Virus record (IMG/VR): IMGVR_UViG_3300042914_002629
Coordinates: 1 to 64,000 of that record
DNA from: a virus
Length of the DNA: 64,000 nt
Reading direction: 5' to 3' (one strand)
The position numbers and the translations under genes are program-made. Below the pieces are notes generated by a model, which worked only from the letters and a program-made list of their open reading frames with translations, had not been told where the DNA came from and did not search any database. The first letter of the stretch is position 1; every line of letters begins with the position of its first letter. Below are positions 3,708 to 21,969 of the stretch, one piece after another.

Positions 3708-3901
3708 AGGCGGCGCAATGGGACTCCGGCTCGAAAAGCTGCGGCACATGCTCGCTTTGGGCCATATTGCCGCCTGACTGGGGCGGGTGCGGCGTCTGTC
3801 ACAGGTTCCCGCCTGTCCCGGTCTACAACCCCGAGGCCAAGGATGTCCAAACCCATGCCCCCATCACGCCGCCGACGCATTGGTGCGCTGAGCACACCTG
3901 A
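3704..3901 (+). CDS. small zinc-finger-like phage protein
   Basis: 65 residues. The pattern CGTC-x12-GGCGVCHRFPP-x..-WCAEH is that of a common short phage protein (CxxC, then GxCxRxPP, then WC-x-E) presumed to bind zinc. The start is an ATGA overlap; the last 59 bases overlap the beginning of the methyltransferase gene in another frame. Confidence 0.6.
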   Translation: MKAAQWDSGSKSCGTCSLWAILPPDWGGCGVCHRFPPVPVYNPEAKDVQTHAPITPPTHWCAEHT

Positions 3902-5264
3902 GCCCGATCCCGCCTTCGTGGCGATCGAGCCGCCGGACGCGCCGATCGCGACCCTGGCCGTGGAGTACCGGCCATATGAGACGCTGGTGCCATATGACCG
4001 CAACGCCCGCACGCACAGCGCCGAGCAGGTAGAGCAGATCGCGGCCTCCATGGTCGCGTTCGGCTGGACCAATCCCGTGCTGGTGGATGAGCACAGCGGC
4101 ATCATCGCCGGCCACGGGCGGCGCCTCGGCGCGCAGCGAGCGTGGGATACCGGCCGGGTGATCCCGAACGTGCCCAAGGGCATGGTGCCCGTGATCGTGC
4201 TGCGCGGCCTGTCGCAGGCCAAGAAAGAGGCTCTGATCCTCGCCGACAACAAGATCGCCCTCAACGCCGGTTGGGATGATCGGCTGCTGGCCACCGAGCT
4301 GGCCAACCTACAGGACGCGCTTGAGGCCGAGGGGCTGGATCTGGCGATCACCGGGTTCGATGATGCCGAGGCGTCCAAGCTGATCGACGCGTTGGAAGAG
4401 CATGGGCCTGGCCTGGGCGGCGGCGATGATGCCCCTGACTTCCCGATCGAGCCCGTGAGCCGCACCGGCGACCTGTGGCTGTTGGGCGATCACCGCCTGC
4501 TGGTGGGCGACACGCTGGACCCGGCGGCGATGGAACGGCTCATGAACGGCGCCAAGGCCGATCTGGTGCTGACCGATCCTCCCTACGGGATCGACTACCA
4601 CTACAGCCGGGCCGAGGATAAGGGGCGCATCCAGGGCGACAAGATGTCCGGCGCCGACCTGATCAACTTCCTCGGCGACGCCTTCAAGGCGCTGCTGGCC
4701 GCGTCCAAGCCGAGCGCGCCGCTCTACATCTGGTTCAGCAGCAACATGACGAAAGAGACCCACATCGCCCTCGGCAACGCCGGGAAAAAGCCGTCGACCG
4801 AGATCATTTGGGACAAGGCGGCCCTCGGGGTGGGCTTCAACGACTACCGGAACAGCCATGAGGCGTGCATCTTCGTGTCCGGCGGCAAGGGCGCCTGGTA
4901 CGGCGGACGCGATGAAAGCACCATCTGGCAGGTCAAGCGCGAGCGCGACTACAAGCACCCGACGCAGAAGCCGGCCGAGCTGTTCATTCGCGCGGTGCGC
5001 AACAGCTCCAAGCAAGGCGACATGGTGGTGGATGGGTTCGGCGGCAGCGGCACCACCGTGATCGCTTGCCAGGCCACCGGGCGGGCCGCGCGGGTGATGG
5101 AGAAGGAACCCGGCTACGCCGACGTGATCATCGGCCGGTGGCAGAAGTGGACAGGCCAGGCCGCGACACTGGCGACCAAGGATGGGATGACCTTTGCCGA
5201 GGTGCTGGCCGAGCGCCAGCCGCAGGCGCCGCTGGGCGTGCAGATCGAGCGCAAGACCCGCTGA
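3843..5264 (+). CDS. ParB-like domain fused to DNA methyltransferase (beta-class N4/N6 order)
   Basis: 473 residues. Residues 35-180 are a ParB/Srx-type domain (RNARTHSAEQVEQI, then GIIAGHGRRLGA). Residues 200-473 are a methyltransferase with TDPPYGIDY near residue 245 and the SAM-binding FGGSGTT near residue 400. That order (catalytic motif IV before motif I) is the beta class, methylating N4-cytosine or N6-adenine. Such solitary phage enzymes protect phage DNA from host restriction or mark it for packaging or regulation; no nuclease partner is present. Last gene of the rightward left arm. Confidence 0.85.
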   Translation: MSKPMPPSRRRRIGALSTPEPDPAFVAIEPPDAPIATLAVEYRPYETLVPYDRNARTHSAEQVEQIAASMVAFGWTNPVLVDEHSGIIAGHGRRLGAQRAWDTGRVIPNVPKGMVPVIVLRGLSQAKKEALILADNKIALNAGWDDRLLATELANLQDALEAEGLDLAITGFDDAEASKLIDALEEHGPGLGGGDDAPDFPIEPVSRTGDLWLLGDHRLLVGDTLDPAAMERLMNGAKADLVLTDPPYGIDYHYSRAEDKGRIQGDKMSGADLINFLGDAFKALLAASKPSAPLYIWFSSNMTKETHIALGNAGKKPSTEIIWDKAALGVGFNDYRNSHEACIFVSGGKGAWYGGRDESTIWQVKRERDYKHPTQKPAELFIRAVRNSSKQGDMVVDGFGGSGTTVIACQATGRAARVMEKEPGYADVIIGRWQKWTGQAATLATKDGMTFAEVLAERQPQAPLGVQIERKTR

Positions 5265-8443: not shown

Positions 8444-8973
8444 CAGGCCGCGAGAGCGTCGCGGTAGCGGCGCAGCATCTTGGCGTAGGTGTTCGTGCCC
8501 TTCACCGGATAGGCGGCCAGGGTCGCGATGTCGCCGGCCTGCGCCAGCTCATACATCCGATCGCAGTGCTTCTGATACCCGGCATTCTTGCCGCTGGTGA
8601 TTTCCAGCCGGGCCTTGGCCTGCCCCAGCGTGGTGGCCATGTCGACCCGCTTGCGCTTAGCAGTCACCGACTGCGCCTTGGCGAGGTGGGCTTCCGTGGC
8701 GGCCACGGTGCCGTTCGCCATCGCCGCGGTCATAGCCGCCAGCAGGTCGCCGCCGGCCACCAGATTGCAAGCGTCCGGCGCATCGGCCATGATTGCGGGT
8801 GCCGACGCTGCGACTTCCTGCGCCGGTTCGGTGACCATGGGGCTGAAGTGATAGAGGCCGTCGACGTTGGAGATGATGAAGTCCACGCCATCCTTGCCCG
8901 TGGGGCAGCCGAACGCCTTGCGGGCGGCGCGGATGGAATTGGAGCGATCTGTGTACGGCTTGCTGGTGGTCAT
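8443..8973 (-). CDS. hypothetical protein with AGDI...NTYAK repeat motif
   Basis: 176 residues starting MTTSKPYTDRS, five bases after a CGAAAGGGCA ribosome motif (8979-8988). The C-terminus, AQAGDIATLAAYPVKGTNTY followed by AKMLRRYRDALAA, closely resembles helical repeats in the middle of the polyvalent protein at 14117-18721 (AAAGDVHGILNTTYGTNTYG...LVAL). First gene of the leftward operon, read from the promoter at 9022-9050. Function unknown; the repeat may be a small protein-protein interaction unit. Confidence 0.65.
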   Translation of the reverse strand: MTTSKPYTDRSNSIRAARKAFGCPTGKDGVDFIISNVDGLYHFSPMVTEPAQEVAASAPAIMADAPDACNLVAGGDLLAAMTAAMANGTVAATEAHLAKAQSVTAKRKRVDMATTLGQAKARLEITSGKNAGYQKHCDRMYELAQAGDIATLAAYPVKGTNTYAKMLRRYRDALAA

Positions 8974-9011
8974 GACCTTGCCCTTTCGTTGTGCCCGTTC
9001 GGGGCGTTTCA

Positions 9012-9050
9012 TCTTCACAATGTTATAGTGAAGCGACGCGGGAACGTCAA
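9012..9050 (-). promoter_or_regulatory. leftward promoter with CTTCAC...GTGAAG operator
   Basis: Read leftward: -35 TTGACG (9045-9050), 17-base spacer, -10 TATAAC (9022-9027). An inverted repeat CTTCAC (9013-9018) / GTGAAG (9028-9033) brackets the -10 box, and the sequence just downstream is ATTGTGAAGAT, shared with other operon heads. The -35 box overlaps the start codon of the divergent terminase gene, so leftward early and rightward late transcription meet here. Confidence 0.7.
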
Positions 9051-9574
9051 TGGCAAAAACGTCGGCAGAAATGCTGAACATCGATCGCAGGATTTGGGAC
9101 TACCGCCTCGCCGGCCTCGGCACGGCGCAGATAGCCTCTGCCCTGGATATGACCCCTGCCCAGCTCGCAAAGCGCATGGAGCGGGTCAAGCGGCAGATCG
9201 AGCCCGAGATCAGGGACGCGGCCAAGTCGCATGTGGCCCTTCAGTACGCCCGGCTGGAGCGCATGATCCGCGCCATGTGGCCACAGGCCATCGGCAATCC
9301 GGGACGCGGCAAGCCTGGCGACCGCGACCACATCCCGAAGGTGCCGCCCGACCAAGGCGCGATCAGGGAGATCGCCGCTCTCATGCGCGACCAGTCCGCG
9401 CTGCTGACCAAGTCCATCGGCTCGCTGCCGGCCGCCGCCGGAACCTCGGACGCCGCCGACCAGGCCGCAGCCAATGAAGACGAAAACGCAGAAGCCGCAA
9501 GATCCACGCTCGCTGATCGAATTGATCGGTTGCTTGCCACCCGAGCTGCGCAGGGAAGCTCTAGCGGATCTTAG
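9050..9574 (+). CDS. terminase small subunit (by position and fold)
   Basis: 174 residues. Starts with an N-terminal HTH-like segment (IWDYRLAGLGTAQIASALDM), a charged helical middle and a low-complexity Ala/Asp/Ser C-terminus. It directly precedes and overlaps TerL by 101 bases, where the DNA-recognition subunit of the packaging motor normally lies. Sequence identity alone is weak, so the call rests on position and HTH. Confidence 0.65.
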   Translation: MAKTSAEMLNIDRRIWDYRLAGLGTAQIASALDMTPAQLAKRMERVKRQIEPEIRDAAKSHVALQYARLERMIRAMWPQAIGNPGRGKPGDRDHIPKVPPDQGAIREIAALMRDQSALLTKSIGSLPAAAGTSDAADQAAANEDENAEAARSTLADRIDRLLATRAAQGSSSGS

Positions 9575-10937
9575 CCTCAACCAAGCGGAGGCCATCCTCT
9601 ACGACTGGCGGGTGTGGGCGCGTGATGACCAAATCGCCCCGCCTGGCGACTGGGATCAATGGCTCCTGCTGGGCGGACGCGGCGCGGGCAAGACCCGAAC
9701 AGGCTCGGAATGGATCAGGGAGCAGGTCCGCAACGGCATCGGCAAGATCGCGCTGGTGGCCCCGACCGCGGCCGATACCCGAGATGTCATGGTCGAAGGG
9801 GACTCCGGCATTCTGTCGGTCTGCTGGAAGCACGACAAAGACCGCTGGGGCCGCCCCACCGGGCGACCGCTCTATGAGCCTTCCAAGCGCAAGCTGACCT
9901 GGGAGAACGGCGCCTATGCGCTGCTGTTCTCGGCCGAGGAACCCGAGCGCCTTCGCGGCCCGCAGTTCGGCGCCGCGTGGACCGATGAGCTGGCGGCCTG
10001 GAAATACCTGATCGACACCTGGGACATGCTGTCGTTCGGCCTCCGGCTCGGCGACAACCCGCAATGCGTCATTACCACCACGCCGAAGCCGATCAAGCTG
10101 CTGAAAGACATCATGGCGGACGCGGGCACGCGCATCTCCAGCGCGTCGACCTTCGCCAACGCGGCCAACCTGGCGGGCAAATTCCTCAAGCGGGTTCGTG
10201 CAAAGTACGAAGGGACGCGACTGGGCGATCAGGAGCTATACGCCAAGATCCTGGATGACATCGCTGGCGCCCTGTGGAACCGCTCCAATATCGACAAGCA
10301 CCGGCTGCGGATCAAGTTCGATGAGGCGGGCAACCCCTATCGGGTCTGGCCCGACCTTGCGCGCATCGTGGTGGCCGTCGACCCCGCGACCACGGCCACC
10401 GAGAACAGCGATGAGACCGGCATCATCGTGGCGGGCCGGGGCGTGGACAAGCGCGGCTACGTGCTGGACGATTGCTCGGGCATCATGTCGCCGGCCGAGT
10501 GGGGCGAGGCGGCTGTCCTGGCCTATTGGAACCACATGGCGGACGCGGTGGTGTACGAGAGCAACCAGGGCGGCGACATGGTCAGGCACGTGATTAAGTC
10601 CAGCGCCGAAAAGCTGCATCGCGAGGGGAAGATCCGCTCGCCAGAGATCAACATTCGCGGCGTTCACAGCTTCCGCGGGAAAGTGCTTCGGGCCGAGCCC
10701 GTCTCGGCGCTATATGAGCAGGGGCGGATATCGCATGTCGGCGGCTTCGCTGTCCTGGAAGAGCAAATGTGCGCCTTCACCCAGGATTTCGACCGCAAGG
10801 CGATGGGCTATTCGCCCGACCGTGTGGACGCGCTGGTGCATGGGTTCACAGACCTGCTTGCGGACCTGATGGAAATCCCCCTTGTCGATCCGTTCTCGAT
10901 CGAGGGGCTATCGAAATGGAGGCCGGGAATTGGCTGA
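9474..10937 (+). CDS. terL: terminase large subunit
   Basis: 487 residues. Walker A GGRGAGKT at residues 67-74, Walker B/catalytic carboxylate AAWTDE around 168-172, coupling motif TTTPK near 200, and a nuclease domain with VAVDPATTATENSDETG near residue 300 supplying the RNase H-like acidic residues. This is the ATPase-nuclease that drives DNA into the prohead and cuts concatemers. Length is normal for the family. It overlaps the small subunit gene upstream and the portal gene by 8 bases downstream. Confidence 0.95.
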   Translation: MKTKTQKPQDPRSLIELIGCLPPELRREALADLSLNQAEAILYDWRVWARDDQIAPPGDWDQWLLLGGRGAGKTRTGSEWIREQVRNGIGKIALVAPTAADTRDVMVEGDSGILSVCWKHDKDRWGRPTGRPLYEPSKRKLTWENGAYALLFSAEEPERLRGPQFGAAWTDELAAWKYLIDTWDMLSFGLRLGDNPQCVITTTPKPIKLLKDIMADAGTRISSASTFANAANLAGKFLKRVRAKYEGTRLGDQELYAKILDDIAGALWNRSNIDKHRLRIKFDEAGNPYRVWPDLARIVVAVDPATTATENSDETGIIVAGRGVDKRGYVLDDCSGIMSPAEWGEAAVLAYWNHMADAVVYESNQGGDMVRHVIKSSAEKLHREGKIRSPEINIRGVHSFRGKVLRAEPVSALYEQGRISHVGGFAVLEEQMCAFTQDFDRKAMGYSPDRVDALVHGFTDLLADLMEIPLVDPFSIEGLSKWRPGIG

Positions 10938-12450
10938 TACCGAACCGACCAAGGGTCCGGCGATCCCCAGCGCGATGCAGGAGATCGGCGATAGCGCGCT
11001 GCGTCGCACCGGCGGCTATGTGCGGGAAGATTTCCTGCCCGAGCTGCTGGGGTTGCAGGCGGCGCGGACCTACCGGGAGATGTCCTACAATGACCCGGTG
11101 ATCGGTGCCATCCAGTTCGCGATGAAGATGCTCATCAGCCGGGCCGAGTGGGATGTGCAGCCGGCCGACGACACCCCCGCCGCGCAGGAAGAGGGGGAGT
11201 TTGTCGAGGGCATGATGGGCGACATGGTGATGTCGTGGGGCTCCATGATCATGGAAGCCCTCACCATGCTGACCTACGGCTACGCCCCGATGGAGGTGGT
11301 GTGGAAGCGGCGCGGCGGGCAGAACCCCGACAAGATGAAGTCGAGCAAGTTCGATGACGGGATGATCGTTCCCGCCAAGATCGCCCTGCGCGCGCAGTAT
11401 TCCATCACGCAATGGGAATTCGATGAAGTCGGGAATCCGACTTGGTTTTGGCAGATGACCGAAACCCGCGGGATGCTCAAGGTGCCGCTGGCGAAATGCT
11501 TGCTGTTCCGGACCACCGAAGAGCTGAACAACCCGTTGGGCTACTCGATCCTGCGCAACGCCTATCGGCCGTGGCTGTTCAAAAACCGGATCGAAGAGAT
11601 CGAAGGCATCGGGATAGAGCGCGACCTGGCGGGCCTGCCGGTGATGAAGATCCCGGCCTCATACATGGCCGACGACGCCGACCAGCGGATGCGCAACATC
11701 TATGAGATGTGCAAAAACCTTGTGCGCGGCATCCGGCGCGACAAGGAAGAGGGCGTGATCCTGCCCTCGGACATGCAGCGGGATGGCGAAGGCAAGCTGA
11801 CCGGAAACCCCGGCTTCGCGCTGGAGCTGCTGTCCACCGGCGGCAGCCGGCAGTTCGACACCACCAAGATCATTGACCGCTACGACCACCGGATTGCCAC
11901 CTCGACGCTGGCGGATTTCATCTTCCTGGGCCAGCAGGCGGTGGGCAGCTTCGCGCTGTCGAGCGACAAGACCGCCCTGTTTTCGCAGGCGATCGGCGGC
12001 TTTCTCGACATGATCGAGAACGTGTTGAACAGCCTCGTGGAGACCATCTGGCGCCTGAACGGCAAGGATGTGGATCTGATGCCGACGCTGAAGCATGGCG
12101 ACGTGGAGACCCCGAACCTGACAGAGCTGGGTACGTACATCTCGGCGCTGGTCGGCGCGGGCGCGCAGCTCTTCCCCGACGTGGACCTTGAGAACCGGCT
12201 GCGCAGCTTCGGCGGCCTGCCCGAGGCGCCGGAGGATCGCGAGGTGGTGGACGATCCGACCACGGCAGCCATCCTCGGACGCGGCGGCACGCCGCAACAG
12301 CAGATGGCCCGGCAGCAGGCGGCGAAGGCGGCCACCGATGAGGCCAAGCAAGCCGAGAAGGACGCGGCGGTGCCCGCACCTGGCGGCAAGCGGCCCGGCG
12401 CCGGAACCAAGCCCCCGCCGCAGCGTAGCAACCCGAAGGCAACGCGCTAA
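10930..12450 (+). CDS. portal protein
   Basis: 506 residues from a TTG at 10930, chosen for the GGAGG seven bases before it and because earlier codons lie inside terL. A long helical/beta protein with YNDPVIGAIQFAMKMLISRA near the N-terminus, FRTTEELNNPLGYSILRNAY in the middle and a Pro/Ala/Lys-rich C-terminal tail, the pattern of DUF935-type and related siphovirus portals. It forms the dodecameric DNA channel at the capsid vertex. Its place between TerL and a MuF protein is canonical. Confidence 0.85.
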   Translation: MADTEPTKGPAIPSAMQEIGDSALRRTGGYVREDFLPELLGLQAARTYREMSYNDPVIGAIQFAMKMLISRAEWDVQPADDTPAAQEEGEFVEGMMGDMVMSWGSMIMEALTMLTYGYAPMEVVWKRRGGQNPDKMKSSKFDDGMIVPAKIALRAQYSITQWEFDEVGNPTWFWQMTETRGMLKVPLAKCLLFRTTEELNNPLGYSILRNAYRPWLFKNRIEEIEGIGIERDLAGLPVMKIPASYMADDADQRMRNIYEMCKNLVRGIRRDKEEGVILPSDMQRDGEGKLTGNPGFALELLSTGGSRQFDTTKIIDRYDHRIATSTLADFIFLGQQAVGSFALSSDKTALFSQAIGGFLDMIENVLNSLVETIWRLNGKDVDLMPTLKHGDVETPNLTELGTYISALVGAGAQLFPDVDLENRLRSFGGLPEAPEDREVVDDPTTAAILGRGGTPQQQMARQQAAKAATDEAKQAEKDAAVPAPGGKRPGAGTKPPPQRSNPKATR

Positions 12451-13535
12451 TGGCCGTGGACCCGATCCACGCGGCGGCCGAGCGGCTTGAGCCGAAGATC
12501 CGGGACGCGTTCCTGGCGGCCATGGCCCTGATCACCGATCAGGACAACATCGACGCCGTGGTGGCGGCGATCATGCGCGGCGATATCGAGGGTGCCCTGT
12601 CGGCGCTGGGCCTCGGGCCGAGCGATACCCTGCCAGAGCTGGCCAGGGCACTCAGGGCGGGCGTCGAGGCCGGCGGGCTGGCATTGCCCCTCACCATGCC
12701 CGCGAGCCGCGCTGAAGCCCTGCTGGTGCGGTTTGACATGCTCAACCCGCGCACGGTCCAGTTCATGCGCGACTATGAGCTGTCGCTGATCCGGCAGATC
12801 AATGAGAAGACCCGCGAGGGCGTCCGAACCTCATTGCTCAACGGCCTCAACGCAGGCGAGAACCCGCGCACCATCGCGGTGGAGACCAAAAAGGTGCTCG
12901 GGCTCACCTCGAAACAGGTGGGCGCAGTTGATAACTTCCGGTTCGAGCTGGAGCACTTCCACGAAAAGCGAGGCGCCAAGGCGTGGGGCTTGGGCAACTC
13001 CATCAACCGGGCGCCCGGCGGCGCGCAAGTCTCGATCCTCGATCGCAACGGCTTCAACACCGATGGCATTAACGCCCGGCGCCTGCGCGATTTCCGGTTC
13101 GACCCGACGCTGAAAAAGGCGATGGAGACCGGCAAGCCGATCCCGCCCGAGAAGATCGACCAGATGGTCCAGCGGTATCGGGAGAAGATGCTCAAATACC
13201 GGGCTGAGACCATCGCCCGCACCGAAGCCCTGCGCGCGGCCAACGCGGGCGCGCTGGAGACCTGGAACCAAGCCATTGAGGCGGGCAAGACCACCACGGA
13301 TCTTGTGCGCAAGCGGTGGATCGTGGCGCACGATGAGCGGACCTGTCCCGTGTGCCGCCCGATCCCGAAGGCGAACGCGGGCGTCGAGGGCTACGGGATC
13401 AGGATAGACCAGCCCTTTCAGACATCGGTGGGTTCGTTCATGACAGCCCCCGTCCACCCGGATTGCCGATGCAGCGTAATTTTCCGGGTGCTGGAGACCT
13501 GGATGGTGGGCGTGAAAAAGGAGAAGTTCGGATGA
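12450..13535 (+). CDS. MuF-like minor head protein
   Basis: 361 residues. The C-terminal third has the MuF/SPP1 gp7 signature: TIARTEALRAANAGALETW, then a CPVC pair, and PVHPDCRCSVIF near the end; the cysteines and His probably bind zinc. Such proteins are packaged with the portal and help head assembly or DNA ejection. TAATG overlap with the portal gene. Confidence 0.85.
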   Translation: MAVDPIHAAAERLEPKIRDAFLAAMALITDQDNIDAVVAAIMRGDIEGALSALGLGPSDTLPELARALRAGVEAGGLALPLTMPASRAEALLVRFDMLNPRTVQFMRDYELSLIRQINEKTREGVRTSLLNGLNAGENPRTIAVETKKVLGLTSKQVGAVDNFRFELEHFHEKRGAKAWGLGNSINRAPGGAQVSILDRNGFNTDGINARRLRDFRFDPTLKKAMETGKPIPPEKIDQMVQRYREKMLKYRAETIARTEALRAANAGALETWNQAIEAGKTTTDLVRKRWIVAHDERTCPVCRPIPKANAGVEGYGIRIDQPFQTSVGSFMTAPVHPDCRCSVIFRVLETWMVGVKKEKFG

Positions 13536-13997: not shown

Positions 13998-14116
13998 CAT
14001 GACCGCCGCACCGATCAGACCGGAGCGGCCCGCGATCATGCGGAACCTGCTCGCTGTCGCGTGCAGTTCGTCATAGATTGCGGTTTCCTGCCCATCCATC
14101 GACGGACTGTAAGCCG

Positions 14117-17100
14117 ATGCCGGACGATAGCGCCACCATCGAGAAGCTGACAGGCACCTTCGCCGCTTACAGCCTCGCCCCGCGCAGCGCCAACGTGCTG
14201 GCAGCATGGGCGGCCGAGATGGGCGTGCCCAACCCGGTCGCGGCGAAAGACCTGCATCTCACCACCGTGTACAGCCGGACGCCGGTGCCCGCGTATAGCC
14301 CAAATGGGTTGCCTGGGATGCTCCTGCTGGCCGATGGGTTCGGGCTGGAGCACTTCGGGACCGCGCTGGTGCTCACCGTGACGGCCGAGTGGCTGATGGA
14401 GAACGCCGAGCACGCCAAGAGCCTGGGGGCGACCAGCGATTTCCCATCCTACCGGCCGCACATCACCCTGAGCTACGACGCGCCGGATTTCATGCCGGAG
14501 ACCCCGCCTCCGTTCGCCCTGCGCCTCGGCGATGAGCGGGTGGAAGACCTGCGCAAGATGCTCCGGGCCATGACCAGCGTAGCCGTGATGATCAGCAAGG
14601 GGTGGAACCCCGGCCAGGCGCGCGTGCCCGCTGGCGGGCCTCATGGCGGCCAGTTCGCGGGCAAGGGCGGCACCGGCATGGTCGGCGACATCCAGGCGCC
14701 GCACCTCGGGATGCAGGATGGCATGAACGTCGCCACCGGCGACCCCTACCCCATGACCGCGGTGCGGCCGACCGATGTCGATTTCAACGACAACCCCCAC
14801 GACCTGGCCGTGTACGTGAAGGGCTACGACCCTGGCAGCCTGGATGGCGCCAGGTTCGACCGCTGGACTCCGCCTGGCGACTGGTCGCGCGTCGAGGGGC
14901 AAGACCCCAAGCTGGTCGAGGGCAACCTGATCACCGCGCGCGGCAAGTCGATCGGCTCGGGCGTGATCATCACTGAGCCGGACGGCCGGATCTGGATGGT
15001 GGAGCCGACCAACCATTTCGGCGGCTACGAGAACACCTTCCCCAAGGGCACGGCCGAGGCTGGGCTTTCGTTGCAGGCCAACGCGATCAAGGAAACCTAC
15101 GAGGAGTCCGGGCTCAAGGTCCGCATCACGGGCGTGCTCGGGGACTATGAGCGCACCACCAGCGTGGCCCGCTTCTACCTGGCCGAGCGCACCGGCGGGA
15201 CGCCGACCGGCGCCGGCCCGGAATCCCAGGCCGTGAAGCTGGCGCCGCTGCATGAGGCGCGCCGGCTGGCGAACAAGCCCGTGGATCAGAAGATCCTGGA
15301 TGACTACGAGGCGCACATTGCGGCGCGTCCGGCGCCGGTGGCGAAGGCGATGGCCCTGCCGCTGCTGCGCGTGATCGCGCAGGCCATGGCGCGCGTGGTC
15401 GAGAAGGTGAAGGGGCCGGATGGATATAACCGCTGGCCGGCGGGCTCCAGCAAGGGCGGCGAATTCGCTCCGAAGGGCGTACACGGCGGCGGCGCGGGCG
15501 TTGGGGGCGGAGGTGCCGCGGCTGCGGCCAAGGCCACCCAGGCGCCTCCGGGCGCATTCCAGCACCAGCTCATGACCGGGAAGAACCCCGACAACACCGC
15601 CCTCATCTCGGCGAACAAGGCCATCGCCCATTACGGCAGCCTGGCGAACAAGGCCGACGTGGCGGGCCTGGCGGCGGCCATGCCACCCGATCCGTCGAAG
15701 CAGGCCAGCGGCGGCAACGGCTACACCAAGGCGAAGTTCGCCCAGTGGCAGGCGGCGATGACCCACGCCATCGCCCAGTCGAACAAGCCGGTCACGGCCG
15801 CCACAGGCACCGACCAGACTCCCATGAAGCTGTCGGCCATGACGCAGGTCGGCGCGAAGCCTGGCGGGTCGGCCAAGGGGGCGATCTACAAGGACGCGGA
15901 TGGCCAGAAGTGGCTGGTCAAGTCCTACCCGTCGAGCGACCAGGCCAAGAATGAGGTGCTTGCGGCGAACCTCTACAAGCGCGCTGGGATCGACGCGCCT
16001 GAGATGAAGCTGGTCGACCTGGATGGCCAGTTCCACGGCGGGATCGGCGTGGCCTCGAAATTCGAGGATGGGACGCTGTCGAAGTTCGACCCGAGCAACC
16101 CCGTTGCGGTGGCCAAGGCGCAGGAGGGCTTCGCCGTCGATGCGTGGCTGTCCAACTGGGATGTGGTCGGCCTGTCGAATGACAACCTGCTGTCGCGTCC
16201 GGATGGTAGCCTTGTCCGCATCGATCCGGGCGGGGCGCTGCTGTACCGGGCACAGGGCAGCCTCAAGGGCGACGCCTTCGGCGAGACCGTGGGGGAATGG
16301 GATAGCCTGCGCGGCATCGGCCCCAACGCCAACGCGCAGGCGGCGCAGGCGTTCGGCAAGATGACCCCGGAGGCCATGGCCAAGAGTGCCGATCGCGTCC
16401 TGTTCATCCCCAACGCCGACATCCGCGCGATCGTGGCCAAGTACGGTCCCGGCGATGAGGCGGCCAAGACGGCGCTGGCGGACAAGCTGATCGCCCGCAA
16501 GAGCGACCTAGTGAACAAGGCGCTGACCGTGGCGCCCGCGTCGTTCCTGGCCCCGCCGCCTCCGGTGGCCGCCGCGCCTTCGCCGAAGACCGAGGGCAAG
16601 CCTGCCGTGCCCACCTTCACGGGGGAAGCGGCCACCTTCTACGACAAGCAAGTGGCCAAGATCGCGGCGATGGGCGAGGGCTCGGATTTCATCCCCAAGA
16701 TGTATGTGCCGTCGAGCGCGGGAGCGCACGGCAGTGATAATTACAAGGCGTATCAGCAGTTCTACCACGACAGCTTCGTGGCGGCGGCCAGCAGCGGGAA
16801 GCCGATCGAGCCGCCCTCGATCTTCTACAAGGGCTCCGGCAGCGTCACCGGCGCCGAGAAGGCCAAGATCGACGCGCAGATCGACAAAGACCCCAAGGGC
16901 GTGGACAAGGTCATCACGGCCGACAACTACGCCTATGTCGCCGCCAAGATGGTTGAGCAGGGTCACGGGGATGTGAATATCGGGTACATCTCGGCGACCA
17001 AGGCGCTGAACGATCTTCCCGCGTCGCATTTGTTTGAGCAGACCGGACTGCCGAACAGCCTCGGCAAGGATAACGCCGTGGCGCTGCTGCACAGCAAGGG

Positions 17101-18721
17101 CGACCTGCACAACCAAATCAATGCCATCGCTGGCAAGCCGCTGTCGGCCGACCTGACCACCTTCAGCGACGCCGATCTGAAGATCACCATCAACACCGAT
17201 CACCTGGCGGCGGCGAAGGCGGCTGCGCAGTCGCGCGAGCCGACCAAGATGCCCGACACGCCGATGACCCAAGGCGTGCCGCTGCCCAACTACGGCGCGT
17301 CCAAGCTGCCGGATGACAACACCAACGCCCCCACCTTCAACTCCCAGGTGGACAAGCTGGCGGGCCAGGCGGCAGCCGGCGACGTGCATGGCATCCTGAA
17401 CACCACCTACGGCACCAACACCTACGGCAAAAAGCTGGCGGCGCTGGCCAACAACACGCTGGTGGCCCTCGGGCACCCGGCGCTTGTTTCGCCCGGCATG
17501 AACACCAAGAGCGACCCGGCGAAGGGCACCTACAAGGTCGCGGATGGCTGGGGCGGCGCCAAGTCCGGCGGCCTCACCGCGGAGGCGCTGGCGCAGGTCG
17601 CGCCGAAGGTGGCCCCGCCAAAGGTCAAGGTGGAGCCGCCCAAGCCCGTGTTCCGGGAGTCCGACCTGCCGAAGCCGGTCGACTTCAACAACTGGAATGG
17701 CGCGGGCAAGGGCCTCTCGTCCAAGCCTGCTGTCAACGACCAGAACAGCATGGTCGCGAAGGCGCTCTACGACGCGGCGAAGACCGGAGACATCGCGAAG
17801 ATCAATGCGATGTACTACCAGCCGATCAACGCCGCCGGCAAGCCCGAGGGCCTTCCCAAGCCGATCAGCTCCCACCCGTCGCAGCACATCCGCGACTACC
17901 AGACCATGCTGGCGCAGAACATCCACGACCAGCTCAACCCGGCTGCGCCGCCCCGCAAGATGGCAGTGGGGGCGACCTTCGCCGACCTGTCGTCCAAGGC
18001 GGAAAAGCTGGACTACAAGCAAGCCGCCAACTGGTCGGACAAGATCGGCCACCGATACAGCGTGGTCGGCAACCCTGGCGTAGTGAATGAGAAGGCGCTG
18101 GGGATCGACCAACACATCTACGCGGGGGTGGGCTACAACGGCGGCGACAAGGTCTACAACGCCAGCCGCACGGCCTTTGACAAGCTGACCGCCACCGAAC
18201 GCAATGCGATCGTGCATTACACCGGCGGCGGATACGACGGCATGACCTCGGCCCTCACCTCGGGCAAGCTGGGGCCGAACGATCAGGCCAAGATGGCGCT
18301 GAACGGCCTGGCCAAGGCGTCGCAGCCGATCCCGAAGGGGATGATCCTCAAGCGGTTCCACAGCCTGGATGAAGCTGGCATCGCCAAGATGAAATCGAGC
18401 ATCGGCAAGGCCATCCTGGACCCGTCGATCACCTCCACCAGCGTGAAGCCGGATTTCCATTGGCCCGGAAACGTGATGCTGCGGATGGTCACCGGCGAGG
18501 GCGTGAAGGCGCTCTATGCCGGGCGCAACCCGAAGACCTACACCGGCCAGGCCATCTCCCAGCACGCCAATGAGATGGAGATGATCATGCAGCCGAGCAC
18601 GCGCTACCTGATCCAAAACGTGCGCCCGAGCCATGCCCTCACGCCCGAAGAACACGCCAACGGCTTCACGGCTGGCGGGGCTAAGTGGATCATCGACGTT
18701 GTGGTGTTGCCCACGGATTGA
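14117..18721 (+). CDS. polyvalent protein: 2H phosphoesterase-like, Nudix-like, HipA-like kinase, ADP-ribosyltransferase-like
   Basis: 1534 residues. Residues 8-130 have two HxT motifs (HLTTVYS at H47, HITLSYD at H115) of 2H phosphoesterases. Residues about 265-390 are Nudix-like: KGTAEAGLSLQANAIKE then TYEESGLKV, with Leu where the first Glu of the box is expected and K for R. Residues 570-790 resemble HipA-like kinases: K602 in QKWLVK, NWDVVGLSNDNLL (D682), RIDPGG (D703). Residues 1360-1534 look like an ADP-ribosyltransferase with R1413, S1440-T-S and E1486-M-E1488. Two GGQFA/GGEFA linkers and helical AGD..NTY repeats join the parts. Such fusions near MuF genes are thought to be packaged and injected; delivery is inferred. 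Confidence 0.8.
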   Translation: MPDDSATIEKLTGTFAAYSLAPRSANVLAAWAAEMGVPNPVAAKDLHLTTVYSRTPVPAYSPNGLPGMLLLADGFGLEHFGTALVLTVTAEWLMENAEHAKSLGATSDFPSYRPHITLSYDAPDFMPETPPPFALRLGDERVEDLRKMLRAMTSVAVMISKGWNPGQARVPAGGPHGGQFAGKGGTGMVGDIQAPHLGMQDGMNVATGDPYPMTAVRPTDVDFNDNPHDLAVYVKGYDPGSLDGARFDRWTPPGDWSRVEGQDPKLVEGNLITARGKSIGSGVIITEPDGRIWMVEPTNHFGGYENTFPKGTAEAGLSLQANAIKETYEESGLKVRITGVLGDYERTTSVARFYLAERTGGTPTGAGPESQAVKLAPLHEARRLANKPVDQKILDDYEAHIAARPAPVAKAMALPLLRVIAQAMARVVEKVKGPDGYNRWPAGSSKGGEFAPKGVHGGGAGVGGGGAAAAAKATQAPPGAFQHQLMTGKNPDNTALISANKAIAHYGSLANKADVAGLAAAMPPDPSKQASGGNGYTKAKFAQWQAAMTHAIAQSNKPVTAATGTDQTPMKLSAMTQVGAKPGGSAKGAIYKDADGQKWLVKSYPSSDQAKNEVLAANLYKRAGIDAPEMKLVDLDGQFHGGIGVASKFEDGTLSKFDPSNPVAVAKAQEGFAVDAWLSNWDVVGLSNDNLLSRPDGSLVRIDPGGALLYRAQGSLKGDAFGETVGEWDSLRGIGPNANAQAAQAFGKMTPEAMAKSADRVLFIPNADIRAIVAKYGPGDEAAKTALADKLIARKSDLVNKALTVAPASFLAPPPPVAAAPSPKTEGKPAVPTFTGEAATFYDKQVAKIAAMGEGSDFIPKMYVPSSAGAHGSDNYKAYQQFYHDSFVAAASSGKPIEPPSIFYKGSGSVTGAEKAKIDAQIDKDPKGVDKVITADNYAYVAAKMVEQGHGDVNIGYISATKALNDLPASHLFEQTGLPNSLGKDNAVALLHSKGDLHNQINAIAGKPLSADLTTFSDADLKITINTDHLAAAKAAAQSREPTKMPDTPMTQGVPLPNYGASKLPDDNTNAPTFNSQVDKLAGQAAAGDVHGILNTTYGTNTYGKKLAALANNTLVALGHPALVSPGMNTKSDPAKGTYKVADGWGGAKSGGLTAEALAQVAPKVAPPKVKVEPPKPVFRESDLPKPVDFNNWNGAGKGLSSKPAVNDQNSMVAKALYDAAKTGDIAKINAMYYQPINAAGKPEGLPKPISSHPSQHIRDYQTMLAQNIHDQLNPAAPPRKMAVGATFADLSSKAEKLDYKQAANWSDKIGHRYSVVGNPGVVNEKALGIDQHIYAGVGYNGGDKVYNASRTAFDKLTATERNAIVHYTGGGYDGMTSALTSGKLGPNDQAKMALNGLAKASQPIPKGMILKRFHSLDEAGIAKMKSSIGKAILDPSITSTSVKPDFHWPGNVMLRMVTGEGVKALYAGRNPKTYTGQAISQHANEMEMIMQPSTRYLIQNVRPSHALTPEEHANGFTAGGAKWIIDVVVLPTD

Positions 18722-18735
18722 GCTAGGGTGCGCGA

Positions 18736-19221
18736 ATGGACATGACCTTTCAGGGTGCCGTCGACCGGCTGCCCGATGCCGAAGCCAACTATCTGGGCGA
18801 CCCCGATGTGATCGAGGCGCTGATCCGGCAGTTCATAACTGCGCTTGTGGACAACGCCAAGGCGGCCACCTCGGATGATGCGGCGGCGGCCGGCACCCAG
18901 GCGCTTGCGTCCGAGTATGCCAAGTTCCTGGCCGGACTCGATCCCGCCTACCCGCCCGTCGAGGATTGGAACACCACCAGGCTCGGCCCCTACGCCGCGA
19001 AGTTCCTGGGTCTGGAGATGGCCGAGGGCGACACGGTTGAGGCCGTGATGCGCGACGCCTGGGCCTCCATCGTGATCGGCTTCTACGATGCCTTGGCCAA
19101 GGTGGCTGAGAGCAACAGCGTGGAGCCGATGGATTTCTACGTCGAACGGACCATAGAGACCTGGCGGGCCGTGTTCCTCGGCCTGCCGATCCCCACCCCC
19201 GAGGAGTCCGCCGATGTCTGA
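18736..19221 (+). CDS. hypothetical head-module protein
   Basis: 161 residues, helical and acidic, with no recognised family. Lies 14 bases after the polyvalent gene and overlaps the protease gene by 8 bases, so it is part of the head assembly operon. Confidence 0.6.
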   Translation: MDMTFQGAVDRLPDAEANYLGDPDVIEALIRQFITALVDNAKAATSDDAAAAGTQALASEYAKFLAGLDPAYPPVEDWNTTRLGPYAAKFLGLEMAEGDTVEAVMRDAWASIVIGFYDALAKVAESNSVEPMDFYVERTIETWRAVFLGLPIPTPEESADV

Positions 19222-19633
19222 CCTGAATGTCGAGATGCGCAGCAACATCGTGAAGCGCGATGATGACCAGCGCATAGTCTACGGCTGGGCACTGGTGGTC
19301 GAAGAGCACGGGCGGCCAGTAGTCGACCACCAGGGTCACCAGATCAGCCAAGAGGTGATGGAGAAAGCCGCCATCGGCTTCATGGAAGATCACCGCGTGG
19401 GCGGCATCCTCCACATCAAAAAGGCCGATGGGTCCGCCATGAAGGTGGCCGAGGTGGTCGCGAGTATGCCGATGACCACGGAAATCCAGAAGGCGTTCGG
19501 TCTGGACCTGGGAAAGGCCGGCTGGATGATCGGCCTCAAAGTCCTGGATGATGGCATTTGGCAGATGGTCAAGCGCGGCGACCTGCCCGCCTTTTCCATC
19601 GGCGGCTCGGGCGTGCTCACAAATGCCGATTGA
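19214..19633 (+). CDS. XkdF-like prohead protease
   Basis: 139 residues. VYGWALVVEEHGRPVVDHQG, FMEDHRVGGILH and the closing LPAFSIGGSGV follow the XkdF/phage serine protease pattern (compare HK97-type prohead proteases: an early strand, a central His, and an F-SIGG end). It would mature the scaffold and capsid inside the prohead. Directly upstream of the scaffold-like and capsid genes, as expected. Confidence 0.8.
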   Translation: MSDLNVEMRSNIVKRDDDQRIVYGWALVVEEHGRPVVDHQGHQISQEVMEKAAIGFMEDHRVGGILHIKKADGSAMKVAEVVASMPMTTEIQKAFGLDLGKAGWMIGLKVLDDGIWQMVKRGDLPAFSIGGSGVLTNAD

Positions 19634-20881: not shown

Positions 20882-20964
20882 GACCGTCCCTGAGCGAGGC
20901 GGCCTGAGCCCCGCCAACCTCGCAACAAAGGGCGTCACCGACGCCGTTGATTGGAGTAACCAAG

Positions 20965-21969
20965 GTGCCGACTCCGGCCGAAGTCACGCTCGACACGTAT
21001 CTCACCGGCTACTCCCTGCGCTTTGCGCAGAGCGCCGCCAACTTCATCGCCAACCGGGTGTTCCCCGTGGTCCCGGTGCAGCTCCAGTCGGCGCTGTACA
21101 TGACCTTCCCCCGTGGCTATTTCTGGCGCGACCAGATGGAGCCCCGCCCGCTGGGCGGCCGTCCGCCCCGCGCCGACTACAAGACCGGGCAGGCGGGCTA
21201 TTTCGCGATCGAGTATGGCCTTGAGCACGCGGTGGATGACCGCACGCGCGCCAACGTCGTCGGCCCGCTGGTGCTGGATGAGCAGGCCACCACCATCCTG
21301 ACCCAGGCGTCGCTGATCAAGCGCGACCGCTTTTGGGCCAGCAAGTATTTCAAGACCGGCGTGTGGGCCTTCGACTACGAGGGCGTCGCCGCCGCGCCGA
21401 CCGCGGGCCAGTTCCTCCAGTTCAACCAGGCCGGCAGCGACCCGATCGCGCTGCTGGATGGCATCCGCGACCTGATGGCCCTCCAGACCGGCCAGACCCC
21501 GAACAAGCTGGTGCTGGGCGTCGATGTCTACCGCGTGCTGAAAAACCACGCGGCCTTCATCGAGCGCATCAAGTACAGCCAGAAGGCCGTGGTCACGACC
21601 GATCTGATGGCGCAGTTCTTCGAGGTGGAAGAGGTGCTGGTGGCACGCTCCATCTACAACGCCAAGGACGAGACCAACGTGGTCGGCGCGCCCGGCACCG
21701 AAGGCGGCCTGTCCATGCAGTGGATCGTGGACTCCAAGTCCATGCTGCTGATCTACGCGCCGGCCAACGTCGGCTTGAACATGCCGACCGCGGGCCTGAC
21801 CTTCGCCTGGACCAACCTGATCGCGGGCGCGGGCAATGCCAATGGCGGCGTGATCGAGCGGTATCGGGAAGGGCCGAACCACTCGGACATCTTCCAGATC
21901 CGCGACGCCTGGGACCAGGGCATCGTGGCGTCCGACCTGGGCGTGTTCTTCCACAACGCGGTGGCGTAA
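20965..21969 (+). CDS. major capsid protein
   Basis: 334 residues. The GTG at 20965 is preferred because GGAG lies nine bases upstream; a TTG at 20947 would add six residues. Starts TPAEVTLDTYLTGYSLRFAQ, then FIANRVFPVVPV, typical of the lambda E/HK97-fold capsid family, and ends with an IRDAWDQGIVASDLGVFFHNAV segment. No long cleavable N-terminal delta domain is visible, in agreement with a separate scaffold gene. Confidence 0.85.
   Translation: MPTPAEVTLDTYLTGYSLRFAQSAANFIANRVFPVVPVQLQSALYMTFPRGYFWRDQMEPRPLGGRPPRADYKTGQAGYFAIEYGLEHAVDDRTRANVVGPLVLDEQATTILTQASLIKRDRFWASKYFKTGVWAFDYEGVAAAPTAGQFLQFNQAGSDPIALLDGIRDLMALQTGQTPNKLVLGVDVYRVLKNHAAFIERIKYSQKAVVTTDLMAQFFEVEEVLVARSIYNAKDETNVVGAPGTEGGLSMQWIVDSKSMLLIYAPANVGLNMPTAGLTFAWTNLIAGAGNANGGVIERYREGPNHSDIFQIRDAWDQGIVASDLGVFFHNAVA

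What the first reader, a model, noticed from the sequence alone, without database searches (positions are those of the whole stretch)
14117..18721. One virion-region protein combining 2H phosphoesterase, Nudix, kinase and ADP-ribosyltransferase modules
The 1534-residue protein next to the MuF gene carries motifs for four NAD/nucleotide or phosphotransfer activities: two HxT motifs (H47, H115), a Nudix box whose first Glu is replaced by Leu, HipA-like kinase residues (K602, D682, D703) and an R-STS-ExE ADP-ribosyltransferase (R1413, S1440, E1486/E1488). ADP-ribose handling at both ends (transferase, Nudix, 2H) is suggestive of a self-contained effector system, likely injected with DNA since MuF-linked polyvalent proteins in other phages are. 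The combination is unusual.
Basis: partly seen in the sequence, partly recalled or inferred. Interest (0 to 1): 0.85.

Follow-up and report, generated by a model that had tools for sequence, protein, structure and literature searches.

The report
Phage head-gene protein with four enzymes
A phage carries, among its head-building genes, one long chain of four enzymes that looks like a pre-packed kit for disarming and reprogramming the bacterium, and one of the four belongs to a family known to erase a bacterial alarm signal.

Summary
Three readings change. (1) The "2H phosphoesterase" is an Acb1-family domain (Pfam PF23474, E=1.8e-25), the T4 gp57B anti-CBASS cyclic-oligonucleotide hydrolase family; it branches with stand-alone T4-type Acb1. 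(2) The Leu in the Nudix box is this subfamily's norm (87 of 113 rows), not decay. (3) The combination is not a one-off: Nudix + HipA/CtkA-like kinase + ADP-ribosyltransferase is a recurrent cassette beside phage head genes (31 distinct single-ORF examples, window included; 26 with head genes in the locus). Acb1 is an add-on in 5 of the 31. One 1747-aa relative fuses all four to a portal protein, another fuses three to MuF. Acb1 domains are part of a portal protein in 62 of 154 distinct Acb1-bearing ORFs (seeded sample, not a frequency). Best reading: a virion-borne polyvalent effector, combining T4 Alt-like host modification with CBASS escape. Packaging and activity are inferred, not shown. 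Polyvalent effectors and 2H-portal fusions were published in 2017 and 2022; the Acb1 assignment and this triad were not found in the papers searched.

The parts
14117..18721 (+). 1534-aa polyvalent protein (P0001): Acb1 - Nudix - kinase - helical beads on disordered linkers - ART
14153..14557 (+). Acb1-family 2H domain, residues 13-147; HxT at 47-49 and 115-117, E143
   Evidence: Pfam PF23474 E=1.8e-25; PDB 7t26 Acb1 E=9.1e-13; A4 alignment; tree
14603..14668 (+). linker motif copy 1 (VPAGxxxGGQF type), between Acb1 and Nudix
14792..15307 (+). Nudix domain, residues 226-397; Nudix box 311-333 (15047-15115)
   Evidence: Pfam PF00293; A2 alignment; residue counts
15425..15481 (+). linker motif copy 2 (RWPAGSSKGGEFAPKG), between Nudix and kinase
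15854..16534 (+). HipA/CtkA-like kinase, residues 580-806; K602, E613, D682, N690, D703
   Evidence: A1 alignment; AF2 model pLDDT 92.3; CtkA Z 17.8, HipA Z 12.8 and 11.3
17279..17506 (+). helical bead 'mid', residues 1055-1130, shared with related proteins and with the gene at 8446-9099 on the minus strand
   Evidence: high-confidence helices in model
17654..17956 (+). helical bead 'mid2', residues 1180-1280
18056..18718 (+). R-S-E ADP-ribosyltransferase domain, residues 1314-1534; R1413, S1440-T-S1442, E1486-x-E1488
   Evidence: A3 alignment; PDB profile hits; PHROG 3895
10882..12450 (+). portal protein (Portal_Mu)
12450..13535 (+). MuF minor head protein
19214..19633 (+). XkdF-like prohead protease (Peptidase_S78_2)
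20947..21969 (+). major head protein (phrog_1005)

Best explanation
P0001 is a virion-associated polyvalent effector. It is made with the head proteins, packed beside MuF and portal, and delivered with the DNA, so that the phage has several enzymes in the cell before it makes any protein. The Acb1 domain is predicted to linearise CBASS cyclic di/trinucleotides. The C-terminal R-S-E domain is predicted to ADP-ribosylate arginines of host proteins, as T4 Alt does. The kinase is predicted to phosphorylate host protein(s) and the Nudix to cut a nucleoside-diphosphate compound, possibly ADP-ribose. Shown here: domain identity, conserved active-site residues, kinase fold, synteny, recurrence, and fusion of the same modules to portal and MuF in relatives. 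Inferred: packaging, ejection, activities and substrates.
For: Four families with intact active sites. Kinase fold. Gene order TerL-portal-MuF-P0001-protease-MCP. Of 31 distinct ORFs with Nudix+kinase+ART in one chain (window included), 26 have MuF/portal upstream or fused, or the XkdF protease downstream, in the locus. L165 is one 1747-aa ORF with Phage_portal_3 + Acb1 + kinase + Nudix + ART; L035 has MuF + Nudix + kinase + ART (the MuF match is 25.3 bits, below Pfam's 29.6). In Yersinia phage fHe-Yen8-01 the kinase-ART protein and the Nudix protein are both annotated as particle-associated. Disordered linkers with small beads fit passage through a portal (inference). T4 Alt is a published precedent for a head-packed, injected ART (PMC5512222, passages).
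Against: No proteomics for this phage; the basis of the fHe-Yen8-01 annotation was not seen (no paper held). The MuF domain is in a separate gene here. Delivery with DNA is not shown for any Nudix-kinase-ART protein. A portal-borne Acb1 (Pam3 portal, PDB 8hds) may stay in the particle rather than enter the cell. The position matching the T4 Acb1 stacking Trp (W147) is not Trp in P0001, though stand-alone relatives such as L234 end before it too. Host and its defences are unknown.
Confidence: 0.62

Rival explanations
1. Late, assembly-site protection: the protein acts in the cell that makes it, when head proteins appear, and need not be injected. Acb1 held at the procapsid would destroy CBASS signal where a trigger (prohead protease) is made.
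For: P0001 lies in the head operon, with the protease gene close downstream. Acb1 is fused to XkdF-type protease ORFs (7 distinct ORFs by the HMMs built here; of the two given to Pfam, L305 shows both domains and L335 shows Acb1 only) and to portals. A prohead protease of phage Bas13 is reported to interact with a CBASS sensor (PMC12409349, passage, citing Richmond-Buccola 2024, which is not held).
Against: A late diffusible enzyme would not need fusion to virion proteins; T4 Acb1 is stand-alone. The ART, kinase and Nudix modules would gain most from early delivery (inference).
Confidence: 0.25
2. ADP-ribose circuit: ART, Nudix and 2H act on one chain of NAD-derived products, with the kinase regulating it.
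For: ART and Nudix co-occur strongly: of 78 Nudix-anchored loci 65 have the ART and 66 the kinase. 2H enzymes can act on cyclic ADP-ribose phosphates (PMC9503650, passage).
Against: The 2H domain is Acb1-type with intact Acb1 residues and is absent from 26 of 31 triads; it cannot be a required step.
Confidence: 0.08
3. Superinfection or lysogeny weapon: a toxin made against rival phages or other cells, merely parked in the head operon.
For: Many kinase relatives lie in bacterial genome contigs without a recognised head gene in the locus (43 of 59 genome loci; the HMMs used are narrow). Kinase-Nudix ORFs of 560-773 aa occur in Pseudomonas syringae-group genomes.
Against: Head-gene synteny in 26 of 31 triads and direct portal and MuF fusions.
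Confidence: 0.05

Closest known systems
T4 Acb1 (gp57B), Hobbs et al. 2022, PMC9117128
   Same: Same Pfam family; HxT/HxT tetrad and the adenosine-contacting Glu conserved (T4 H44, T46, H113, T115, E141; here H47, T49, H115, T117, E143); same strongly supported tree side as stand-alone T4-type members
   Different: Here a domain of a 1534-aa head-operon protein; highest identity 38% to a held relative; activity untested
Polyvalent proteins / effectors (Iyer et al. 2017, PMC5512222; 2022, PMC9503650)
   Same: Large multi-enzyme proteins beside head genes, with ART, Nudix or 2H domains, predicted packed and injected; 2H fusions to MuF and portal already noted
   Different: Acb1 is not named in the 2022 text (0 hits) nor HipA in the 2017 text (0 hits); the triad described here was not seen in the passages read (figures not held)
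T4 Alt
   Same: R-S-E ART, head-packed and injected precedent (PMC5512222 passages)
   Different: No Acb1, Nudix or kinase module in Alt (recalled); link only at superfamily level
Pseudanabaena phage Pam3 portal (PDB 8hds)
   Same: Portal with a C-terminal Acb1-family domain (profile E=7.6e-30)
   Different: Portal-type Acb1, second motif HxS in the printed alignment; a 621-aa portal with no room for the other three modules
Helicobacter pylori CtkA and HipA kinases
   Same: Fold of the kinase module (Z 17.8 and 12.8/11.3)
   Different: No significant sequence match in the PDB (best E 0.2, a ribosomal protein); substrate unknown

Membership tests
Acb1 (PF23474) | Score above the curated family cut-off | tested here: met
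   89.8 bits against cut-off 27
Acb1 (PF23474) | HxT/HxT catalytic tetrad | tested here: met
   H47, T49, H115, T117; 79 of 79 distinct rows
Acb1 (PF23474) | Branches with the T4 type in a tree | tested here: met
   54-row starred set, 50 of them stand-alone (SH-aLRT 99, quick tree, long window branch 1.25; careful search unfinished)
Acb1 (PF23474) | Hydrolyses CBASS cyclic oligonucleotides | not testable with these tools
   needs purified protein
Nudix hydrolase (PF00293) | Nudix box with the metal-binding Glu residues | tested here: met
   K325 E326 .. E329 E330. G332; E326, E329, E330 in 113 of 113; L317 in place of Glu is subfamily norm
HipA/CtkA-like kinase | HipA/CtkA-type kinase fold | tested here: met
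   AF2 pLDDT 92.3; CtkA Z 17.8 over 220 residues, rmsd 3.1; HipA Z 12.8 and 11.3
HipA/CtkA-like kinase | ATP Lys, catalytic Asp/Asn, metal Asp | tested here: met
   K602, D682, N690, D703 in at least 194 of 198
HipA/CtkA-like kinase | Pfam HipA_C gathering score | tested here: inconclusive
   19.5 bits, cut-off 30.5, first 52 residues only
R-S-E ADP-ribosyltransferase | R, STS, ExE motifs | tested here: met
   R1413, S1440-T-S1442, E1486-x-E1488
R-S-E ADP-ribosyltransferase | Pfam ADPrib_exo_Tox gathering score | tested here: inconclusive
   20.3 bits, cut-off 23.4; alignment profile hits solved R-S-E ARTs at about 1e-12
Phage polyvalent effector | Several conflict enzymes in one chain, encoded with virion genes | tested here: met
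Phage polyvalent effector | Packaged and injected | not testable with these tools
   indirect only: portal fusion L165, MuF fusion L035, particle-associated annotation in fHe-Yen8-01
MuF-domain effector | MuF domain in the same polypeptide | tested here: not met
   MuF is the separate upstream gene 12450-13535; no MuF match in P0001

The most novel reading that the evidence does not exclude
Anti-CBASS nucleases are a widespread built-in part of phage particles: Acb1 domains are carried on portals, prohead proteases and polyvalent head proteins, so infection starts with, or head assembly is shielded by, an enzyme that erases the CBASS alarm at the place and time it is raised. P0001 recruited a T4-type Acb1 independently of the portal-type lineage.
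Probability: 0.45. Interest if true: 0.8.

Novelty: new variant of a known kind. Interest (0 to 1): 0.62.

Why it matters
If the modules are delivered, phages can disarm CBASS before making any protein, and the timing of anti-CBASS action becomes testable with purified virions. The kinase-Nudix-ART triad gives a defined, recurrent set of enzymes whose host targets can be sought. Named isolates with portal-borne Acb1 domains (Rhizobium phage RHEph04, Pseudomonas phage phiPSA1, Pam3) make the broader claim open to experiment.

Tried and rejected
Degenerate Nudix: rejected, the Leu is the subfamily norm. Chance combination: rejected by recurrence. Whole-protein relative among named phages: none covers 80% of P0001 (0 of 1460 records); a viral-contig scan with P0001 gave only two pieces, 100% identical in their best segments. 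Acb1 in L255: rejected, it is another 2H type (23.3 bits, cut-off 27). The 'prohead protease' label on DSS3P8 gp129: a 150-aa gene in a stretch with no other head gene annotated, so no fusion there. Kinase by PDB sequence: no significant match. Residues 802-1312: no Pfam match, model mean pLDDT 65.6, pTM 0.34; not searched for folds. N-terminal slots of L098 and L128: no Pfam match.

Limits. Scans return only the best 80 loci of more (443, 230, 580, 438 and 539 relatives). The Acb1 alignment used for one search contained portal, protease and polyvalent fusions, so 62 of 154 is not a frequency. Rows dropped: 24 duplicate Acb1 domains and those scoring under 40 bits; own copies L001, L007, L398 and L001, L008, L398. 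L171 and L296 are the same contig. Of the 9 of 79 MCP-anchored loci with all three modules, seven are contigs already met in the Nudix scan (contig names). Domain calls beyond those named as Pfam or PHROG are from HMMs built here. The tree is treekit's quick tree; the careful search did not finish and was not resumed.

Full report
Check. The protein at 14117-18721 is one open frame of 1534 aa in a 70,944-base virus record. It lies in the order TerL, portal, MuF, P0001, XkdF-type protease, major head protein. Acb1 and Nudix pass Pfam's cut-offs; the kinase and ART do not, so they were tested further.

Acb1. PF23474 matches residues 13-147 at E=1.8e-25, and the solved Acb1 7t26 matches at E=9.1e-13. 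The catalytic tetrad of T4 Acb1 (H44, T46, H113, T115) and the adenosine-contacting E141 (PMC9117128, passages) correspond to H47, T49, H115, T117 and E143. In 79 distinct rows the tetrad never varies. In a quick tree of 153 distinct Acb1 domains the window row sits on the side of stand-alone, T4-type proteins (54 rows, 50 stand-alone; SH-aLRT 99), while the 99 other rows, mostly portal-borne, form the other side. The window branch is long (1.25), so its exact place is unsure. The label 'polyvalent' needs 4 changes on that tree, at least 3 forced by starred branches; so Acb1 probably entered this kind of protein more than once.

Nudix. The box is G-T-A-E-A-G-L-x7-K-E-x2-E-E-x-G. The Leu at 317 is the commonest residue (87 of 113 rows; Glu 3), and the metal-binding Glu are invariant. 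The closest solved relative is an Ap4A hydrolase (E=5.6e-13 by profile), which does not fix the substrate.

Kinase. Alignments show K602, E613, N680, D682, N690 and D703 nearly invariant. AlphaFold2 on 37 sequences gave pLDDT 92.3, pTM 0.87. The best solved match is H. pylori CtkA (Z 17.8, rmsd 3.1, 220 residues), then CotH kinase (14.5), PI4K-IIalpha (13.4) and HipA (12.8 and 11.3) (Foldseek also ranks CtkA first).

ART. R1413, S1440-T-S1442, E1486-x-E1488. A profile of eight sequences finds R-S-E ADP-ribosyltransferases in the PDB at about 1e-12. The ExE pattern is that of arginine-specific enzymes (recalled).

Rest of the chain. Residues 802-1312 have no Pfam match. The model is low-confidence overall (65.6), with long stretches under 50 and confident helical beads near 1051-1131 and 1176-1276. 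A linker motif of the type [RV][WYHV]PAGxxxGG[QE]F occurs twice in P0001, before the Nudix and before the kinase. With the strict pattern it occurs in 25 of 135 distinct multi-domain ORFs (28 copies in 171,727 aa, own copies L001 and L007 included) against 4 of 1657 other ORFs of 300 aa or more (5 copies in 796,816 aa). All 28 copies lie outside the domains, 55-106 aa before the Nudix or 121-139 aa before the kinase. It could be a packing tag or a protease site; neither is tested.

Recurrence. Of 79 kinase-anchored viral loci, 45 carry the ART and 35 the Nudix (33 all three); of 59 kinase-anchored genome loci, 17 and 12 (7 all three); of 78 Nudix-anchored loci, 66 carry the kinase, 65 the ART, 57 all three. 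Anchored only on the major head protein, 9 of 79 loci have all three in one ORF, and no locus has the Nudix without the other two; seven of those nine contigs were already known from the Nudix scan. Over all loci there are 31 distinct ORFs (window included) with Nudix, kinase and ART in one chain: 25 plain, 5 with Acb1 (three with Acb1 first, one with it between Nudix and kinase, one on a portal), one with MuF; 26 of 31 have MuF/portal upstream or fused, or the protease downstream. In other phages the triad is split: in Pseudomonas phage Dolphis and Yersinia phage fHe-Yen8-01 the kinase-ART protein is followed by a small gene and the Nudix gene, and in Gordonia phage Forza the kinase gene follows the portal gene and precedes an ART gene. 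The slot can hold other enzymes: L161 has a zeta-toxin domain in its N-terminal part.

Virion link. L165 is a 1747-aa ORF with Phage_portal_3, Acb1, NUDIX and ADPrib_exo_Tox by Pfam and the kinase by the HMM built here. L035 joins a MuF-like domain (25.3 bits, below cut-off) to Nudix and ART, with the kinase by the HMM built here. In fHe-Yen8-01 the kinase-ART and Nudix proteins are annotated as particle-associated; no paper on that phage is held. Among 154 distinct Acb1-bearing ORFs, 62 also carry a portal domain, 7 a protease domain, 3 a MuF domain, 7 kinase or ART modules (own copy and the portal fusion L165 included), 22 other long sequence, and 53 are stand-alone. The seeds favoured fusions, so these are examples and not frequencies. 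Pfam was asked about three of the 62 and confirmed both domains in all three; PHROGs was asked about two more and found both. The Pam3 portal in the PDB (8hds) has the domain at E=7.6e-30.

Mechanism. Best reading: a polyvalent head protein delivered with DNA, giving CBASS escape (Acb1) and host modification (ART, kinase), with the Nudix acting on a nucleotide product or signal. Main rival: late protection at the assembling head. It gains weight from the report that a prohead protease can engage a CBASS sensor (PMC12409349, passage) and from Acb1-protease fusions. One experiment separates them: activity in purified virions.

Known or new. Iyer et al. 2017 and 2022 described polyvalent effectors, virion-packed ART and Nudix, and 2H domains fused to MuF and portal, with the proposal that these counter nucleotide signalling (PMC5512222 passages; PMC9503650 passages, section 27 whole and part of section 30). 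Searches for Acb1 with virion, portal or packaging, and for HipA with Nudix, ART and portal, listed nothing that reads as an Acb1-virion fusion or this triad; most subscription papers are not held, and I read listings and passages only. So: a new variant of a known kind, with the Acb1 assignment, its separate recruitment, and the recurrent Nudix-kinase-ART cassette as the new parts.

Noticed in passing
window 14603-14668 and 15425-15481; L097-L137, L249: Linker motif [RV][WYHV]PAGxxxGG[QE]F strongly enriched in multi-domain head-region proteins, always outside the domains; possible packing tag or protease site
   Followed up: partly
L337, L367, L397, L378, L339, L165; Pam3 portal (L480), phiPSA1 portal (L479): Acb1-family domains built into portal proteins, including named isolates
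   Followed up: partly
L305:1279-2262: Acb1 (PF23474) and XkdF-type protease (PF14550) in one ORF; six further candidates by session HMMs
   Followed up: partly
window 8446-9099 minus strand: Separate gene whose C-terminus matches the 'mid' helical bead of P0001 (i-E 9e-5)
   Followed up: partly
L192, L196, L202, L205: Kinase-Nudix ORFs of 560-773 aa in Pseudomonas syringae-group genomes; possibly HopAG1-like, which is described as having a putative Nudix domain (PMC11760712, passage); identity not tested
   Followed up: no
L161:7250-13870: 2207-aa relative with a zeta-toxin domain ahead of the Nudix
   Followed up: no
window 14036-16036 and 16508-18655 minus strand: Antisense ORFs of 666 and 715 aa opposite P0001; probably a by-product of 66% G+C
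   Followed up: no
window 3843-5264: DNA methylase gene (N6_N4_Mtase)
   Followed up: no
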